Source: Polyangium fumosum
GTDB lineage: Bacteria; Myxococcota_A; Polyangia; Polyangiales; Polyangiaceae
DNA: 64,000 bases
Assembly (NCBI RefSeq): GCF_005144585.1
Contig: NZ_SSMQ01000001.1
Span: 434,001-498,000, forward strand
Direction of reading: 5' to 3'
Shown: piece after piece, positions 44,639 through 49,509 of the stretch
Numbering within the stretch: the first letter of the stretch is position 1
Layout: each line of letters starts with the position of its first letter
Made by a program: the position numbers and the translations under genes
The notes under the pieces: model-generated
Databases searched by the model: none
Told to the model about the DNA's origin: nothing
The model's input: the letters and a program-made list of their open reading frames with translations, nothing else

Positions 44639-45363
44639 GAGGCCCGCTGCGTGTCCCCGTCGCCCGCGTCGAAGCGGGCTCTTCGATCCTCGACGAGGAC
44701 GCCTCCCGCTACGTCGCGCGTGTGCATCGAAAGCGCCTCGGGGATCGCGTGGTGCTCTTCGATCCCGACCGTGCGATCGAGGCTGACGCCGAGATCACCG
44801 CGATCGATCGCGCGAGCGTCGCCGTCGTCGTCGAAGCGCCGCGCGCGGCCACGTTCCTCCCGGCGCGCCGCGTGACGCTCCTCCAGGCCACGTGCAAGAG
44901 CGATAAGTTCGACGCCATCGTGCGCGACGCGACCGAGCTCGGCGCGAGCCGCGTGGTCCCGATCAACGCCGAGCGATCCGTGGGCCGCCCTGCGGACGGC
45001 CGTGCTGCGCGGTGGCGGCGCATCGCGGTCGAGGCCGCGCGGCAATGCGGACGCGGCGATGCGCCTGCGATCTCGTCGCCGATGGAGCTCGTGGAGGCCG
45101 TGCAGCTCTTCGCGTCGGGCGAGGGCGTGAACGGCTTCTGCCTGGATCCAGCGGCCGACGCGCCGCTCGGCCCGGCGCTCCGGCGCCTCGGCCCGGAGGT
45201 CGAGCTCGCGTTCGTCGTGGGCCCCGAGGGAGGTTTGTCGCCGGCCGAGATCGAGGCCTGCACCTCGGCTGGCCTCGCGCGTGTCTCGTTCGGCCCGCTC
45301 ACGCTCCGCGCCGAGACGGTATGCGCGGCGGTGCTCGGGGCGGTCGTGCTGCTCTCCCGATAA
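44635..45363 (+). CDS. rsmE: 16S rRNA m3U1498 methyltransferase
   Basis: 242 residues. SPOUT-class knot motifs GPEGGLSPAEIEAC and LTLRAETVCAAVLGAV are diagnostic, with the N-terminal PUA-like part HRKRLGDRVVLFDPDRA and the KSDKFDAIVRDATELGASRVVPINAERSV block. Translationally coupled to prmA. Confidence 0.95.
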   Translation: MRGPLRVPVARVEAGSSILDEDASRYVARVHRKRLGDRVVLFDPDRAIEADAEITAIDRASVAVVVEAPRAATFLPARRVTLLQATCKSDKFDAIVRDATELGASRVVPINAERSVGRPADGRAARWRRIAVEAARQCGRGDAPAISSPMELVEAVQLFASGEGVNGFCLDPAADAPLGPALRRLGPEVELAFVVGPEGGLSPAEIEACTSAGLARVSFGPLTLRAETVCAAVLGAVVLLSR

Positions 45364-45364
45364 C

Positions 45365-45400
45365 GTCCCCGCCGGGGACAAACACCGGCCGGGGACAAAC
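45365..45400 (+). promoter_or_regulatory. Hairpin and direct repeat upstream of the histidine kinase
   Basis: GTCCCC-GCC-GGGGAC (45365-45379), right after the rsmE stop, can serve as its terminator. The right half is also the first of two direct copies of CCGGGGACAAAC, spaced 17 bp apart, ending near 45400, 13 bp before the -35 box of the next gene: a possible operator. Confidence 0.4.
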
Positions 45401-45412
45401 CGTGCAACGGAC

Positions 45413-45441
45413 TTGACAAACCCGGGCGCCCGGCATCACCT
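45413..45441 (+). promoter_or_regulatory. Promoter of the histidine kinase operon, possibly leaderless
   Basis: Consensus -35 TTGACA (45413-45418), 17-bp spacer, weak -10 TCACCT (45436-45441). With standard geometry +1 is the G of the GTG start at 45448. There is no Shine-Dalgarno upstream of this start. Confidence 0.45.
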
Positions 45442-45447
45442 TCCGGC

Positions 45448-46995
45448 GTGTCTTTCCTCGACGACGTGCGCCGCACTCTCGACCGCCCGGAGGGTTCTTC
45501 GTGGGCGCTCTCGGGGCTCGGCGCGCATCGAAAGACGCTGCTCGACGCCCTCGAAGCGCTCGAAGCGCGCGGCGAGCCCGAGGAGAAAATCGAGCGCCTG
45601 CACGACGTCTGGTCCGACAAGCTCGGGGCGTTCGTCCAGGAAATGCAGCGATGGCTCGAAGGCGGCCTCGCGTTTGGCGCGAGCGCCGCGGAGCTCCACG
45701 CGCTCATCGACGTCGCGCTCCGCCGCCGGCTCGGTTTGTCCGACTCGGCCGGCTCGCGCACCCGCGATCGCGAGCTCGATCGCCTCTCCAGCGAAGTCCT
45801 CTTCTCCATCCAGCGCCCCGAGCGCACCCCGAGCCTCTGGCCCGAGCGATATGCGCTCGAAGTCCGGGCATTACGTCGCGCCGAGGGCGAGACGCTCCTC
45901 ACGCCCATTGGCCGGCTCGTCCTCAGCCTGCCCGAGCGGGACGCCGTCCGCTGGCTGCTCGCGGTCGAAGTCGCGCAATCCCGCGGGCCCTCGGATCCGT
46001 GGCGCCTCTCGCGCGCGGCGGCGGCGCGCCTCGTCGCGGCCCGCAGGCTCCGCGTCTTCTGGTATGGCAGCGAGGTAGCCGCGCATCCCCAATCGCTCGA
46101 TCGCCTCGCCGCGCTCGGCCTCCTTTCGTTCGAGGACGAGGCCGAGGAGGCGCTCACCACATACGAGCTCACCGAGAATGGCGCCGAGCTGCTCGCCGAG
46201 GTCGCGTCCGGCGATACGCCGATGGTCCTGCTCGCCGGTGCGCTCATTCAGGACGAGACGGCCGCCGTCCTCGACCGCATTCGCGCGGCCACCGCATTGA
46301 TCCAGCGCGAGAGCGCCGCCTTCGCCATGACCCGCCATGCGCGTATGGTCGCGCACGAGATCCGCAATGCCCTGGTCCCCGTGCGCGAGGCCATCGACGA
46401 CCTCTTCGCCGCGCTCCAGCGGGATGGCCGCGGGCCGCTCGTCGATCGGCACGGCGCCACCATCACGGGCGGCGTCGACCGCATTTTCCGGTTCATGACC
46501 GAAATGGCGCAGGTCGTCGAGCGCGCCGGCCCGCCGCCCGAGCCTTTCGACGTCGCGGCGGCCATCGAGGACGCGCTCGCCGCCCTCGCCGAGGAGCTCG
46601 GCCGCGTGGCCCTTTTCGATCGGCCCCGCTTCCTCCCGCCCGTCCGTGGACGCCGCGACCGGTTCGTCCTGGCCATCGTCGATTTGCTCCGCAATGCGGC
46701 GCGCGCCCGCGACGACCGACCGGCTGAAATTCGCGTCGCCGCCACGCTCGACGCGGATGGCGCCATCGTCGTCACCGTCGACGATGACGGGCCGGGCGTC
46801 CCGCCCGAGTATCGAAAAGCGATTTTTGCGCCCGGATTTTCCTTGCGGCCGGGCGGGACGGGGCAGGGGCTCGCGCTCGTGCGTGAGGTCGCGCGGGCGG
46901 AGCTCGGCGGCGAGGCGTATTGCGAGGAGAGCCCGCTCGGCGGGGCTCGATTCGTCCTTCGCCTGCCGGTGGACGCCGGAAGGAGCGCCGCGTGA
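45448..46995 (+). CDS. Soluble sensor histidine kinase with winged-helix-like region
   Basis: 515 residues, GTG start. No signal peptide or membrane span. Residues 1-200 are helical with no recognised sensor; residues about 205-255 (SLDRLAALGLLSFEDEAEEA ... YELTENGAELLAEVA) look like a winged-helix wing. DHp helix with phospho-acceptor His303 in MVAHEIRNALVPV; ATPase domain with N-box Asn416 (DLLRNAARA), G1 DDDGPGVP (445-452) and G2 GGTGQGLALV (469-478). Complete, so autophosphorylation is expected. The stop overlaps the GTG of the REC-nuclease gene, making that its obvious partner. Confidence 0.9.
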   Translation: MSFLDDVRRTLDRPEGSSWALSGLGAHRKTLLDALEALEARGEPEEKIERLHDVWSDKLGAFVQEMQRWLEGGLAFGASAAELHALIDVALRRRLGLSDSAGSRTRDRELDRLSSEVLFSIQRPERTPSLWPERYALEVRALRRAEGETLLTPIGRLVLSLPERDAVRWLLAVEVAQSRGPSDPWRLSRAAAARLVAARRLRVFWYGSEVAAHPQSLDRLAALGLLSFEDEAEEALTTYELTENGAELLAEVASGDTPMVLLAGALIQDETAAVLDRIRAATALIQRESAAFAMTRHARMVAHEIRNALVPVREAIDDLFAALQRDGRGPLVDRHGATITGGVDRIFRFMTEMAQVVERAGPPPEPFDVAAAIEDALAALAEELGRVALFDRPRFLPPVRGRRDRFVLAIVDLLRNAARARDDRPAEIRVAATLDADGAIVVTVDDDGPGVPPEYRKAIFAPGFSLRPGGTGQGLALVREVARAELGGEAYCEESPLGGARFVLRLPVDAGRSAA

Positions 46996-47924
46996 GACCG
47001 ATGGGCCGCATCTTGATCATCGACGACGACCCGAGCTTTTTGCAGCTCTATCGCGCTCGGCTCGGCGCCGAGGGGTATCTCGTCGAGACTGCGGACGAGA
47101 TCGAAAAGGCGCTCGCGCGGCTCGACCAGGGCGGCTGGGACGTCGTGCTCGTCGATCAGAAGCTCGACGGCAAGACGGGCCCGGACACCGGCCTCGACCT
47201 CGTCTCCGAGGTTTCCCGTCGCGCGCCGCTCGCGAAGACCATCCTCGTCACGGGGTATGCCACGGAGGCCGCGGTCACGCGGGCTTTCCAGGACGGCGCC
47301 TATGATTACCTCGAAAAAGGCCCGATCTTCCGGGTCCTCTTGCTGGCAAAACTGCGCAATGCGCTCGAAGCCGTGCGGGCGCACCATTTCGGCGAGCTCT
47401 CCTCGGACGAGGCCGAGGCGGCGATTCGCGACACCTGGGTCGCGGCCGAGAGCGAGACGGACCCGAACCGCAAGGGCAAGCTGCTCGAAGACCTCATGGT
47501 CCTCGTCTTCAAGACGATCCCCGGTTTTCGCCACGCCTCGGCCCGTCGCCGCAACGAGGAGGAGGAGATCGACCTCGTCATCCGCAACGAATCCACCGAT
47601 CCTTTCTGGGTGAACGAACGCACGTCGTACATCCTCGCCGAATGCAAGAACTGGACGAGGCCCGCGGGCGCCACGGAGATTCGTAGCTTTCTGTGGAAGC
47701 TCTCGCGCAAGTTCAATCGCTCGCGCCTCGGCCTTTTCATCGCGCCGGGCGGGTTTTCCGCGCCCCTCCGCAGCGATCTGCACGGCGAGCGCCGGGATGA
47801 TTACCTCGTCCTTCTCATCAACAAGGCGGATTTGCGGGAGCTCGTCCACGCGCCGGATCGAAATGCCTTCCTGAAGAAGCTGCACGAGCGGGCCGTGCTC
47901 GAATTGCACGGCGAGAACCGCTGA
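46992..47924 (+). CDS. Response regulator with PD-(D/E)XK nuclease output domain
   Basis: 310 residues. The GTG at 46992 overlaps the kinase stop (GTGA) and is preceded by GGAAGGAG; the ATG at 47001 is too far from that site. Receiver domain 1-125: acidic pocket DDD 11-13, phospho-acceptor Asp55 (VVLVDQKL), Thr87 (LVTGYA), Lys109 (YLEKGP). Residues 145-300 form a restriction-endonuclease-like domain: Glu166 (KGKLLEDLM), Asp194 (EEEIDLVI) and the Glu217-x-Lys219 pair (YILAECKNW), with flanking strands GLFIAPGGF and DYLVLLINK, as in Mrr-type nucleases. So phosphorylation probably gates a nuclease. No DNA-binding HTH domain. Confidence 0.88.
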   Translation: MRPMGRILIIDDDPSFLQLYRARLGAEGYLVETADEIEKALARLDQGGWDVVLVDQKLDGKTGPDTGLDLVSEVSRRAPLAKTILVTGYATEAAVTRAFQDGAYDYLEKGPIFRVLLLAKLRNALEAVRAHHFGELSSDEAEAAIRDTWVAAESETDPNRKGKLLEDLMVLVFKTIPGFRHASARRRNEEEEIDLVIRNESTDPFWVNERTSYILAECKNWTRPAGATEIRSFLWKLSRKFNRSRLGLFIAPGGFSAPLRSDLHGERRDDYLVLLINKADLRELVHAPDRNAFLKKLHERAVLELHGENR

Positions 47925-47931
47925 AGCGCCT

Positions 47932-49410
47932 TCACCTCTTGCGCGCGCCGATCAGCCGCCGCAGCGCCTCGGCCAGCGTCGGGTAGGTCCGGCGTGATTG
48001 CATGTCGACGCCGAGGTCCACCATCGTCTTCGCCACGCTCGGCCCGATGCCAGAGAGCAGCCCCGTCGCGCCGACGAGCTCCACGCTGCGCATCACGTTC
48101 GAGAGGTGCTGCGCCGCCTCCGCGTCGACCGTGTCCACGCCCGTCAGGTCGAGGATCACCGCGCTCGATTGCCTACCCACGACCTCGGTGAGCAGCCGTT
48201 CGAGCAGGATGCTCGCGCGGGCCTGGTCGATCGATCCGATCAGCGGCACGACGAGCACACCCTGCCAAACCTCGATCACCGGGCTCGACAGTCCGACGAT
48301 GGCTTGCTGCTGCGATTGGATCAGCGCGAGCTGTTCTTCGAGCCGACGGTGGTTCTCTACGTGATCGGTCACGTTCTCCGCCACGGAGTAGATACGCACC
48401 ACGCGCTCGCCAAACGTATCGCGCACCGGGATGATCGTGTTACGCCAGTGCGTCGTGGCAAAGGACGTCCCGGAGACGAACTGCTCCCCGGCGAACGCCC
48501 GCTTCATGTCCGCCTTGAAATCCTCGCGGTTGCTGTAAAGCTCGTAGAGGTTTGTCCCAACGAGTTCGCCTGGCATGATGCCGAGGTCCTTGAGGCCATT
48601 GCCCAGGGACATCTTGCACGTCCCGTCCGCGTCCATGGCCCAGATCGCGAGGGGCAGCTCCGCGAGCGCCCGGATCAAGGCCTTGGCCTGGAGGGTCTCT
48701 TCCGAGTTCTCATTGGCGCGGAGAGAGAATCCGACGATCGCGCTGACATTGCCGGCTGCGTCTCGCACGGGCGTGAGGCGGCGTATCCAGTAGGACATGC
48801 CCTCGATGCTGTCCCCGTAAAGCTCCTCCCCCGCGAGGGCGCGTTCGGTCTCCTCCCGGGCGACCGATCCGGGGGGATAGATCTGGAGCGCATTCATGCC
48901 GACGATCGCGCCCGGCGCGAGTCCGAAATGGGCGAGCCCTTTCCCTTCAGAGACCAGGATCGTCCCATCCTTGGCGATCGCCCAGAGGATGCCCTCGAAT
49001 CGATCGAAGATTTTGCCGAGGAGCACGGTCCGAAGCGGGACGGGCTCGTCTTTTTCGACGAGGGGAGAAAGCGGCGCTGGAATGTCCGCGCGAGGCTCCG
49101 CGGGGCCGTCCATCCGGACGCATACCCCACCATGACCGGTGGGCCATGTGGTCCAGCGGTTCGCCGTGCCTGTCGCGAGACGGGCGAAAAACGTCGATTT
49201 CTGCGATTGCCCGCTCGCCACGGCCGCGCAGGCCGACGACACGACGCTCCGATCCGCCGCGTCGAAGAGCGTGAGCAGCGACGAGGCCTCGCCGAGCGCC
49301 AGGCGCGCGGCTTCATTATGCGCCACGACCACGTCGCCTTCGACGAGCAACAGCGGATCCGGGCACCCGTCGAACATTCCGCCGAGATGGCGGTATATGT
49401 CGCCGATCAT
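47932..49410 (-). CDS. PAS-PAS-STAS regulator, RsbR-like
   Basis: 492 residues. Two or three PAS folds: N-terminal GMFDGCPDPLLLVEGDVVVAHNEAARLAL, then FEGILWAIAKDGTILVSEGKGLAHFG with a PAC-like ERLTPVRDAAGNVSAIVGFS block, and LPLAIWAMDADGTCKMSLGNGLKDLG with YSNREDFKADM. The C-terminal STAS domain (about 395-490) contains VLVVPLIGSIDQARASILLERLL and AVILDLTGVDTVDAEAAQHL, as in RsbR/stressosome proteins. No kinase or HTH. Probably a sensory component of a partner-switching pathway. Convergent with the nuclease regulator (7 bases apart). Confidence 0.85.
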   Translation of the reverse strand: MIGDIYRHLGGMFDGCPDPLLLVEGDVVVAHNEAARLALGEASSLLTLFDAADRSVVSSACAAVASGQSQKSTFFARLATGTANRWTTWPTGHGGVCVRMDGPAEPRADIPAPLSPLVEKDEPVPLRTVLLGKIFDRFEGILWAIAKDGTILVSEGKGLAHFGLAPGAIVGMNALQIYPPGSVAREETERALAGEELYGDSIEGMSYWIRRLTPVRDAAGNVSAIVGFSLRANENSEETLQAKALIRALAELPLAIWAMDADGTCKMSLGNGLKDLGIMPGELVGTNLYELYSNREDFKADMKRAFAGEQFVSGTSFATTHWRNTIIPVRDTFGERVVRIYSVAENVTDHVENHRRLEEQLALIQSQQQAIVGLSSPVIEVWQGVLVVPLIGSIDQARASILLERLLTEVVGRQSSAVILDLTGVDTVDAEAAQHLSNVMRSVELVGATGLLSGIGPSVAKTMVDLGVDMQSRRTYPTLAEALRRLIGARKR

Positions 49411-49509
49411 GAGAGCGGCTCTAACAGAGAAGGGAGAAAGGCACAACCCGAGGCGTCATCCAGGTGCCTCTTCCATGAACATTGGTAATGTATGCACGTA
49501 TTCGGCCTC

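What the first reader, a model, noticed from the sequence alone, without database searches (positions are those of the whole stretch)
46992..47924. Response regulator whose output domain is a PD-(D/E)XK nuclease
Seen: a complete receiver domain (Asp55, Thr87, Lys109) joined to a domain with the restriction-endonuclease constellation Glu166, Asp194 and Glu217-x-Lys219. Known: nearly all response regulators end in DNA-binding, enzymatic c-di-GMP or protein-binding domains; nuclease outputs are rare. Inference: a phosphorylation-gated nuclease, which could serve defence against invading DNA, damage response or programmed genome cleavage.
Basis: partly seen in the sequence, partly recalled or inferred. 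Interest (0 to 1): 0.85.

Follow-up and report, generated by a model that had tools for sequence, protein, structure and literature searches.

The report
Kinase-switched DNA-cutting enzyme pair
A soil bacterium of the genus Polyangium carries two tightly coupled genes, a sensor kinase and a protein switch joined to a predicted DNA-cutting enzyme; similar pairs sit at different places in other bacteria, which suggests a self-contained alarm that cuts DNA when its sensor is triggered.

Summary
P0001 (46992-47924, +) is a receiver domain joined to an Mrr-type PD-(D/E)XK nuclease domain, both above Pfam cut-offs. The model has the alpha-beta-beta-beta-alpha-beta core.

The real unit is larger. A soluble histidine kinase gene (45448-46995) overlaps the regulator by 4 nt. 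Its homologue lies directly upstream in 18 of 19 assessable Myxococcota loci (one truncated); a shorter kinase, same overlap, in one Planctomycetota contig. Flanking genes are mostly unshared.

Relatives of both ends occur in immune-like proteins: the nuclease with NACHT-like and AAA-type ATPase parts; the sensor region fused to an EAD7-like domain between NACHT and EAD-NB-ARC-TPR genes.

Best reading: a phosphorylation-gated nuclease module, probably for defence or cell suicide, working like Detocs but not filed as a member. Cleavage, phosphotransfer and defence are untested; ten neighbours annotated in six other loci show no defence gene.

The parts
45448..46995 (+). Soluble sensor histidine kinase, 515 aa
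   Evidence: HATPase_c 403-509, E 6e-19; H303, E304, N307, N416, D446, G448, G450, G470, G472, G474 invariant in 16 of 16. Pfam HisKA is matched by 7 of 16 members and not by this one, so its phosphoacceptor domain rests on the alignment and the model. Strongest 19-residue hydropathy 1.38, no membrane span evident
45841..46212 (+). Winged-helix-like part of the kinase sensor region (residues 132-255), after a helical region (1-122)
   Evidence: model (mean pLDDT 80, pTM 0.47); profile of residues 1-285 against PDB gave 6 chains at E<=10, four of them winged-helix regulators at profile positions 199-283: 3f3x E 0.01, 4ejo 0.022, 9fa0 0.15, 7l1i 0.5; weak but consistent
46354..46356 (+). His303 codon, predicted phospho-donor in RHARMVAHEIRNAL
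   Evidence: invariant in 16 of 16
46992..46995 (+). GTGA: kinase stop overlaps regulator start by 4 nt
   Evidence: 4-nt overlap in 16 of 17 loci with the start codons used; in the 17th (L056) an ATG 18 nt further up gives ATGA with the kinase stop
46992..47924 (+). Response regulator with nuclease output, 310 aa
47010..47321 (+). Receiver domain (residues 7-110)
   Evidence: Pfam Response_reg E 2.1e-18; VIA Z 21.8 to 3crn_A, 129 residues, rmsd 1.6
47154..47156 (+). Asp55 codon, predicted phospho-acceptor
   Evidence: 18 of 18 receiver rows
47481..47843 (+). Mrr_cat PD-(D/E)XK domain (residues 164-284)
   Evidence: Pfam 24.8 bits, cut-off 21; core topology
47487..47489 (+). Glu166 codon (helix before the sheet)
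   Evidence: 29 of 29; 42 of 44
47571..47573 (+). Asp194 codon (motif EEID)
   Evidence: 29 of 29; 44 of 44
47640..47648 (+). Glu217-Cys218-Lys219 codons (ExK)
   Evidence: E217 and K219 29 of 29; 44 of 44
45376..45421 (+). Direct repeats GGACAAAC (45376, 45393), then TTGACAAAC (45413), in front of the kinase gene; possible promoter or operator
   Evidence: present with varying copy number in the five Polyangium relatives looked at, the last copy at the same distance from the start. Repeat pair 4 times in the own genome, reversed control 0. Against specificity: single similar sites are enriched elsewhere in the window, 7 found against 1.3 expected, five of them outside this stretch; no sigma-70-like site

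Best explanation
It is a self-contained two-gene two-component module. A cytosolic histidine kinase, whose N-terminal helical plus winged-helix-like region acts as the sensor, detects an intracellular signal (inferred), autophosphorylates on His303 (inferred from conservation) and passes the phosphate to Asp55 of the response regulator (inferred from gene overlap, co-conservation and parallel divergence). Phosphorylation releases or dimerises the C-terminal Mrr-type PD-(D/E)XK domain, which then cuts DNA (inferred). The most likely use is defence against invading DNA or phage, possibly by killing the infected cell (inferred from other proteins that carry related nuclease and sensor domains). 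It works like the defensive two-component system Detocs, with a nuclease in place of the ATP-cleaving effector.
For: Receiver and Mrr_cat above Pfam cut-offs; residues of both active sites conserved; core fold in the model. Homologous kinase directly upstream in 18 of 19 Myxococcota loci with upstream sequence, three of the 18 being Polyangium, and a kinase in the one Planctomycetota locus with the same 4-nt overlap. Kinase and regulator distances correlate: r 0.88 over 17 pairs, 0.82 over 15 without L037 and L058; 0 of 5000 permutations as high in either. Flanks differ between loci: in 18 loci, beyond the close relatives L043/L044 and L048/L051, only one unidentified gene family recurs (L037, L044 downstream, L055 upstream; 31-35% identity). 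Patchy: 12 of 192 class genomes, 8 of 377 in a phylum draw, 6 of 6 in the genus. Related nuclease domains are joined to a NACHT-like part (L057) and an ATPase part (L064). The sensor region (E 3e-56) is fused in L122 to an EAD7-like domain; that domain has 17 matches in the genome, itself included; the gene on one side has NACHT (E 3.8e-11), that on the other starts with the same domain and has NB-ARC (E 1.3e-9) and TPR. PMC7159879 (passages read) lists Mrr-like nucleases among effectors of such conflict systems.
Against: No activity, phosphotransfer or phage phenotype is known. No recognised defence gene among the ten neighbours annotated in six other loci; no relative confirmed in viral contigs. 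PADLOC matches only the receiver part of the regulator (SduA, PD-T4-6) and not the kinase. The regulator is in all 6 genus genomes and the pair stands behind rsmE in the five relatives looked at, which also fits a stable physiological role. Below Pfam cut-offs: EAD7 in L122, NACHT in L057, AAA_16 and nSTAND1 in L064 (whose KAP_NTPase match is above); L057's nuclease part matches UPF0102 weakly and not Mrr_cat at E<=0.05. L052 has no kinase beside it, and L045 shows only the catalytic end of one. The permutation test ignores shared species history.
Confidence: 0.58

Rival explanations
1. Same phosphorylation-gated nuclease, but for DNA damage response, DNA processing or programmed genome cleavage during development rather than defence.
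For: Present in all 6 genus genomes and under purifying selection; neighbours annotated elsewhere are metabolic or miscellaneous genes.
Against: Patchy outside the genus and in different surroundings; related nuclease and sensor domains in NTPase and EAD-type proteins. No damage-response motif was sought.
Confidence: 0.17
2. The kinase holds the nuclease off: the unphosphorylated regulator is active and loss of the kinase signal unleashes it, as in a toxin-antitoxin pair.
For: Close adjacency and 4-nt overlap of the two genes, kinase first, as is common for an antitoxin (established knowledge).
Against: L052 has a regulator with all catalytic residues but no neighbouring kinase, which should be toxic unless silenced or controlled from elsewhere.
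Confidence: 0.13
3. The C-terminal domain binds nucleic acid without cutting, and the protein is an unusual DNA-binding regulator.
For: Most response regulators bind DNA (established knowledge).
Against: The catalytic positions are invariant in 29 of 29 rows spanning receiver-fused, ATPase-fused and stand-alone forms, which binding alone would not require.
Confidence: 0.07
4. The receiver responds to a ligand or nucleotide instead of the neighbouring kinase.
For: Such receivers are proposed in PMC8195603 and for Cam2 in PMC11229360 (passages read).
Against: Those receivers are described as occurring without a kinase; here a kinase is adjacent in 18 of 19 loci and D12, D55, T87, K109 are intact.
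Confidence: 0.05

Closest known systems
Detocs (defensive two-component system)
   Same: A two-component system used against phage (glossary passage of PMC11249213 read). That it consists of a kinase and a receiver-effector protein is recalled.
   Different: Detocs is described as a three-gene family whose best-described effector is an ATP-cleaving PNP domain. Here two genes and a nuclease effector. That Detocs has a stand-alone receiver and a TPR sensor, and that some Detocs operons carry other effectors, is recalled; the original paper was not held.
[quoted passage not shown]
   Same: Nuclease, histidine kinase and winged helix together in a defence setting (passage of PMC12839542).
   Different: There all are in one protein with an RNase of another fold; here kinase and nuclease are separate proteins and a receiver domain carries the nuclease.
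HEF_HK / Response_reg_2 gene pairs
   Same: Adjacent kinase-like and regulator-like genes associated with restriction-modification systems (abstract and passages of PMC8011034).
   Different: Other domain families: PF19191 and PF19192 are not among the Pfam matches here; no nuclease fusion was described in the passages I saw.
EAD/STAND-type conflict systems
   Same: Mrr-like nucleases serve as effectors there (PMC7159879 passage); relatives of this nuclease and of this sensor region occur in such proteins.
   Different: The module itself has no EAD and no STAND NTPase; the signal is predicted to pass through histidine and aspartate phosphorylation.
PorX-type response regulators (PglZ output)
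   Same: Response regulator whose output domain acts on phosphodiester bonds of oligonucleotides (passage in PMC12839542).
   Different: Different output fold (PglZ), not PD-(D/E)XK.
Mrr type IV restriction enzyme
   Same: Mrr_cat domain.
   Different: Pfam's Mrr N-terminal domain was not matched; the input is a receiver domain.
Shedu (SduA)
   Same: PADLOC's SduA model aligns over its positions 8-107 with this receiver (E 7e-5), a hint, not tested further, that some SduA proteins join a receiver to another PD-(D/E)XK family.
   Different: No match of the nuclease domain to DUF4263.
Type I-B CoCoNuTs (CnuA)
   Same: Receiver domain in a restriction-related system, with phosphorylation proposed as control (PMC11090510 passages).
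   Different: There the receiver is joined to coiled coils and a PYD/CARD-like domain, not to the nuclease.

Membership tests
Two-component response regulator | Receiver fold with acidic pocket, phospho-Asp, Thr, Lys | tested here: met
   Pfam E 2.1e-18; D12, D55 18 of 18; T87, K109 19 of 19; Z 21.8 to 3crn_A
Two-component response regulator | Cognate histidine kinase | tested here: met
   overlapping kinase gene; adjacent in 18 of 19 loci; parallel divergence. Adjacency, not phosphotransfer, was tested
Two-component response regulator | Phosphorylation of Asp55 changes output | not testable with these tools
   needs biochemistry
Mrr_cat PD-(D/E)XK nuclease | Profile match above curated cut-off | tested here: met
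   24.8 bits against 21; 28 of 29 A2 rows match at E<=0.1
Mrr_cat PD-(D/E)XK nuclease | Conserved E...D...ExK | tested here: met
   29 of 29 at each of four positions; wider set 42 to 44 of 44
Mrr_cat PD-(D/E)XK nuclease | Alpha-beta-beta-beta-alpha-beta core | tested here: met
   order of elements in the model; pLDDT 72 to 93 by blocks over 151-250
Mrr_cat PD-(D/E)XK nuclease | Structural superposition on solved Mrr/HJC nucleases | tested here: inconclusive
   receiver hits fill the rows shown
Mrr_cat PD-(D/E)XK nuclease | Cleaves DNA | not testable with these tools
   needs biochemistry
Detocs | Three-gene operon | tested here: not met
   only kinase and regulator recur together across loci
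Detocs | PNP effector in its best-described form | tested here: not met
   Mrr_cat instead; other effectors in some Detocs are recalled only
Detocs | TPR-type sensor on the kinase (recalled) | tested here: not met
   no TPR family among the 7 Pfam families that 16 kinases match at E<=0.1
Detocs | Protects against phage | not testable with these tools
   needs experiment
EAD/STAND conflict system | EAD or STAND NTPase in the module | tested here: not met
   no such domain in kinase or regulator; seen only in other proteins with related domains
Shedu | DUF4263 nuclease domain | tested here: not met
   only the receiver part matched PADLOC SduA; no DUF4263 among Pfam matches at E<=1
Mrr type IV restriction enzyme | Mrr N-terminal domain | tested here: not met
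   Pfam matches of P0001 at E<=1 are Response_reg, Mrr_cat and a sub-threshold ATP-synt_F
HEF_HK / Response_reg_2 pair | PF19191 kinase and PF19192 regulator domains | tested here: not met
   neither is among the Pfam matches

The most novel reading that the evidence does not exclude
A mobile immune module of its own kind: a cytosolic kinase whose winged-helix sensor recognises foreign or damaged DNA directly and, by a single phosphotransfer, switches on an endonuclease, so that the whole path from DNA sensing to DNA cutting is two proteins. Its sensor and its nuclease are both interchangeable with those of EAD- and NTPase-wired immune proteins, so histidine-aspartate phosphotransfer would be one of several interchangeable wires in bacterial immunity.
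Probability: 0.25. Interest if true: 0.85.

Novelty: new variant of a known kind. Interest (0 to 1): 0.64.

Why it matters
Two-component systems mostly end in transcription control or second-messenger enzymes (established knowledge). A phosphotransfer path that ends in DNA cleavage would be a fast, transcription-independent response, and it would be a compact, testable case of a bacterial alarm in which sensor, wire and effector are exchangeable: a related sensor region appears on a kinase and on an EAD-like adaptor, and related nuclease domains on a receiver and on ATPases.

Tried and rejected
Viral contigs: 9 pattern matches, none confirmed as a relative. Plasmids: 4 of 72,556 records match the nuclease domain, at 29.5-34% identity. 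Solved structures by sequence: none for the nuclease profile at E<=1. Foldseek and VIA list receivers or receiver-containing proteins in the 50 rows shown each for the regulator, and Foldseek lists kinases for the kinase model (50 rows), so neither tests the nuclease or sensor part. NCBIfam: in the 25 rows shown for each of the two proteins, only receiver or kinase models far below cut-offs. Sigma-70 scan of 45300-48000: none; two terminator-like sites against 1.7 expected.

Considered and rejected: chance fusion or annotation error (fusion conserved; dN/dS low); degenerate nuclease; orphan regulator (kinase adjacent); member of Detocs, Shedu, classical Mrr or HEF_HK pairs (see Membership tests).

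Literature searches whose listings, and the passages I read, showed no paper on a receiver fused to an Mrr nuclease. Listings were capped (25 of 12,266), and the library lacks most subscription papers, among them the original Detocs paper, so absence from print is not claimed. DefensePredictor (PMC13092281, two figure legends seen) names HATPase and REC domains among predicted defence systems; the figure could not be seen.

Limits of counts. Searches scored at most 12, at most 6 and at most 18 candidates per genome, so those tallies are lower bounds; include the own genome and share several others. One search used a home-made gene caller on 16 of 20 Myxococcota loci that missed the kinase in L050 and L054; one search repeated the comparison without gene calling on 17 of the 20 and L058 (L038, L039 near-duplicates of L037 and L046 without upstream sequence left out). 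A2 holds the window and 28 of the 47 loci; left out: L037-L039, L059, L061-L063, L066, L067, L069, L071, L072, L074, L076, L078, L080-L083. One search restored all of these but L038, L039, L066 and L067. The distance comparison used the window, 15 of 20 Myxococcota loci and L058; left out L038, L039, L045 (kinase truncated), L046 (contig end), L052 (no kinase). The kinase alignment A3 has 16 rows, two of them Polyangium. The tree (40 rows) groups the 18 Myxococcota receiver rows at 90/93, short of its mark for firm support; L058 pairs only weakly (83/16) with L057, so one or two origins of the fusion cannot be decided.
Full report
What is there. The ORF at 46992-47924 (+) gives 310 aa. Residues 7-110 match Response_reg and residues 164-284 match Mrr_cat, both above Pfam's curated cut-offs. 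The window lies in a 12.98 Mb genome of 201 contigs; its nearest named relatives are Polyangium species, 96-98% identical over the nuclease domain. The own genome has 44 matches to the protein; one covers both domains, and the other 43 lie in or little beyond the receiver part, the longest reaching residue 199 at E 2.6e-7.

Conservation. In a first alignment of 13 homologues D12, D55, T87, K109, E166, D194, E217 and K219 are invariant, gaps ignored. In A2 (29 rows, including NACHT-like, ATPase-fused and stand-alone forms) E166, D194, E217 and K219 are 29 of 29, and the four receiver residues are invariant in each row with letters there. In the widest set (44 rows) D194, E217 and K219 are 44 of 44 and E166 42 of 44, with gaps in two archaeal rows. 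Eight comparisons within Polyangium, five of them different, give dN/dS 0.02-0.10 over the whole gene.

Structure. AlphaFold2 on A2 gave mean pLDDT 90.1. The nuclease part runs helix 158-174 (with E166), strand 182-187, strand 192-198 (with D194), strand 213-218 (with E217, K219 next), helix 227-239, strand 246-250: the alpha-beta-beta-beta-alpha-beta order that defines the PD-(D/E)XK core (established knowledge). A long helix 113-135 leads out of the receiver. Database superposition of the nuclease part was not possible because receiver structures filled the lists.

The partner. The gene before it, 45448-46995, is a histidine kinase (HATPase_c E 6e-19; no HisKA match of its own; HisKA in 7 of 16 relatives) whose stop overlaps the regulator's start by four bases. 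Of the 20 Myxococcota receiver-nuclease loci, 19 have sequence upstream of the regulator; 18 of these have the homologous kinase there by tblastn, three of them Polyangium. L052 has none; L045 shows only the catalytic end; L046 is cut by a contig end. L058, a Planctomycetota contig, has a shorter kinase without the sensor region, again overlapping by 4 nt (HATPase_c E 1.3e-14). The overlap is 4 nt in 16 of 17 loci with the starts I used; in the seventeenth, L056, an upstream ATG forms ATGA with the kinase stop. Kinase and regulator distances correlate at r 0.88 in 17 pairs and 0.82 in 15, with 0 of 5000 permutations as high. The permutation ignores shared species history, so part of this reflects common descent.

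The sensor. The kinase has no evident membrane span. Its model (mean pLDDT 80, pTM 0.47) shows a helical region 1-122 and a part with the helix and strand order of a winged helix at 132-255. A profile of the region gives six PDB chains at E<=10, four of them MarR- or PadR-type winged-helix regulators, the best at E 0.01 and 0.022; Pfam finds a winged-helix family in one of 16 members at E 0.063. This is suggestive only; what it senses is unknown.

Distribution and setting. The regulator occurs in 12 of 192 genomes drawn from the class (E<=1e-30), in 8 of 377 drawn from the phylum (E<=1e-25; the draws share genomes, and few candidates per genome were scored) and in 6 of 6 of the genus. Flanks were compared in two ways. 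With called genes in 16 loci nothing but kinase and regulator is shared, save between the close relatives L043/L044 and L048/L051. Without gene calling, in 18 loci, the same two pairs share flanks and one further, unidentified family recurs in L037, L044 and L055 at 31-35% identity, downstream in two and upstream in one. In the window the pair follows rsmE; among 27 rsmE loci, the best-scoring from other genera of the family, with 1.5 kb flanks, prmA is found beside rsmE in 18 and neither the kinase nor the downstream STAS gene in any. So the pair seems to have come in behind an old housekeeping pair. Ten neighbours annotated in six other loci were metabolic or miscellaneous genes such as pyruvate kinase, a glycosyl hydrolase and a P450, none a recognised defence gene; this counts against a defence-island setting.

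Related parts, other wiring. The scan with the nuclease profile brought 47 loci. Besides receiver fusions they include L057, whose upstream part has a NACHT-like match below cut-off (E 0.0045) and whose nuclease part keeps the motif but is matched by Pfam only weakly, as UPF0102; L064 (Mrr_cat E 3.1e-12 behind an ATPase region: KAP_NTPase above, AAA_16 and nSTAND1 below cut-off); and L071/L072 (HSDR_N-like below cut-off, Mrr_cat above). The scan with the sensor profile found 14 of 192 class genomes. In L122 the sensor region is followed not by a kinase but by an EAD7-like domain (E 0.0097, below cut-off). That domain has 17 matches in the genome, itself included, 11 in G011, 4 in G020 and none in G000. 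The gene on one side encodes NACHT (E 3.8e-11, above cut-off); the gene on the other begins with the same EAD and carries NB-ARC (E 1.3e-9) and TPR repeats, both above cut-off. More distant sensor relatives (L123-L126) sit on kinase-like proteins in which I saw no clear H-box.

Interpretation. Shown: the fusion, both intact active-site sets, the core topology in a model, the coupled kinase, the largely unshared flanks, and the occurrence of related end domains in other proteins. Inferred: phosphotransfer, activation by phosphate, DNA cleavage, and a role in defence. I put about 0.85 on a functional kinase-to-nuclease path and about 0.58 on the full reading with defence.

Compared with the known. 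Detocs is the closest by function: a three-gene defensive two-component family whose best-described effector cleaves ATP (PMC11249213 glossary passage; its composition otherwise recalled). This module fails the gene-number and effector features, so it works like Detocs but is not filed there. Schlafen RNases fused to a minimal kinase and a wHTH beside BREX loci, and PorX with its oligonucleotide-cleaving PglZ output, are other precedents (passages of PMC12839542), and HEF_HK/Response_reg_2 pairs are linked with restriction systems (PMC8011034, abstract and passages). Conflict-system surveys list Mrr-like nucleases and, separately, receiver domains among effectors; one says no kinase domains were found among its vWA-associated effectors, the other that the receivers occur independently of kinases (PMC7159879 and PMC8195603 passages). 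A kinase-coupled receiver-nuclease is therefore a new variant as far as my searches go.

Checking. 

Noticed in passing
window 45376-45421: Direct repeats GGACAAAC of varying number in front of the kinase gene in Polyangium; the repeat pair occurs 4 times in the genome, reversed control 0. Single similar sites are enriched across the window, 7 against 1.3 expected, so it may be a general promoter element.
   Followed up: partly
L122 (G066:C129): Sensor region fused to an EAD7-like domain, between a NACHT gene and a gene with the same EAD, NB-ARC and TPR.
   Followed up: partly
L123-L126: Distant relatives of the sensor region on kinase-like proteins without a clear H-box; in L124 the following genes look like a SWIM-type protein and a vWA protein (read by eye), an arrangement repeated in part in L125 and L126.
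   Followed up: no
L026 / G122:C2:121783-122672: The kinase sensor region appears as two separate matches, apparently in different frames, in this genome: frameshift or assembly error beside an intact regulator.
   Followed up: no
window 47932-49446 (-); L037:10983-12380 (-): The convergent neighbour of the regulator has PAS and STAS domains; in L037, another Polyangium, a PAS-STAS protein lies about 4.5 kb further off, with other called genes in between, so the downstream flank differs within the genus.
   Followed up: partly
L052 and L056; L040 and L047; L046 and L055: Three genomes each carry two copies of the regulator; in Paraliomyxa one copy (L052) lacks the kinase and has Gly in place of Asp11.
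   Followed up: partly
L058:812-1870 (-): A tyrosine-recombinase-like ORF (by eye) upstream of the Planctomycetota pair, a hint of mobility.
   Followed up: no
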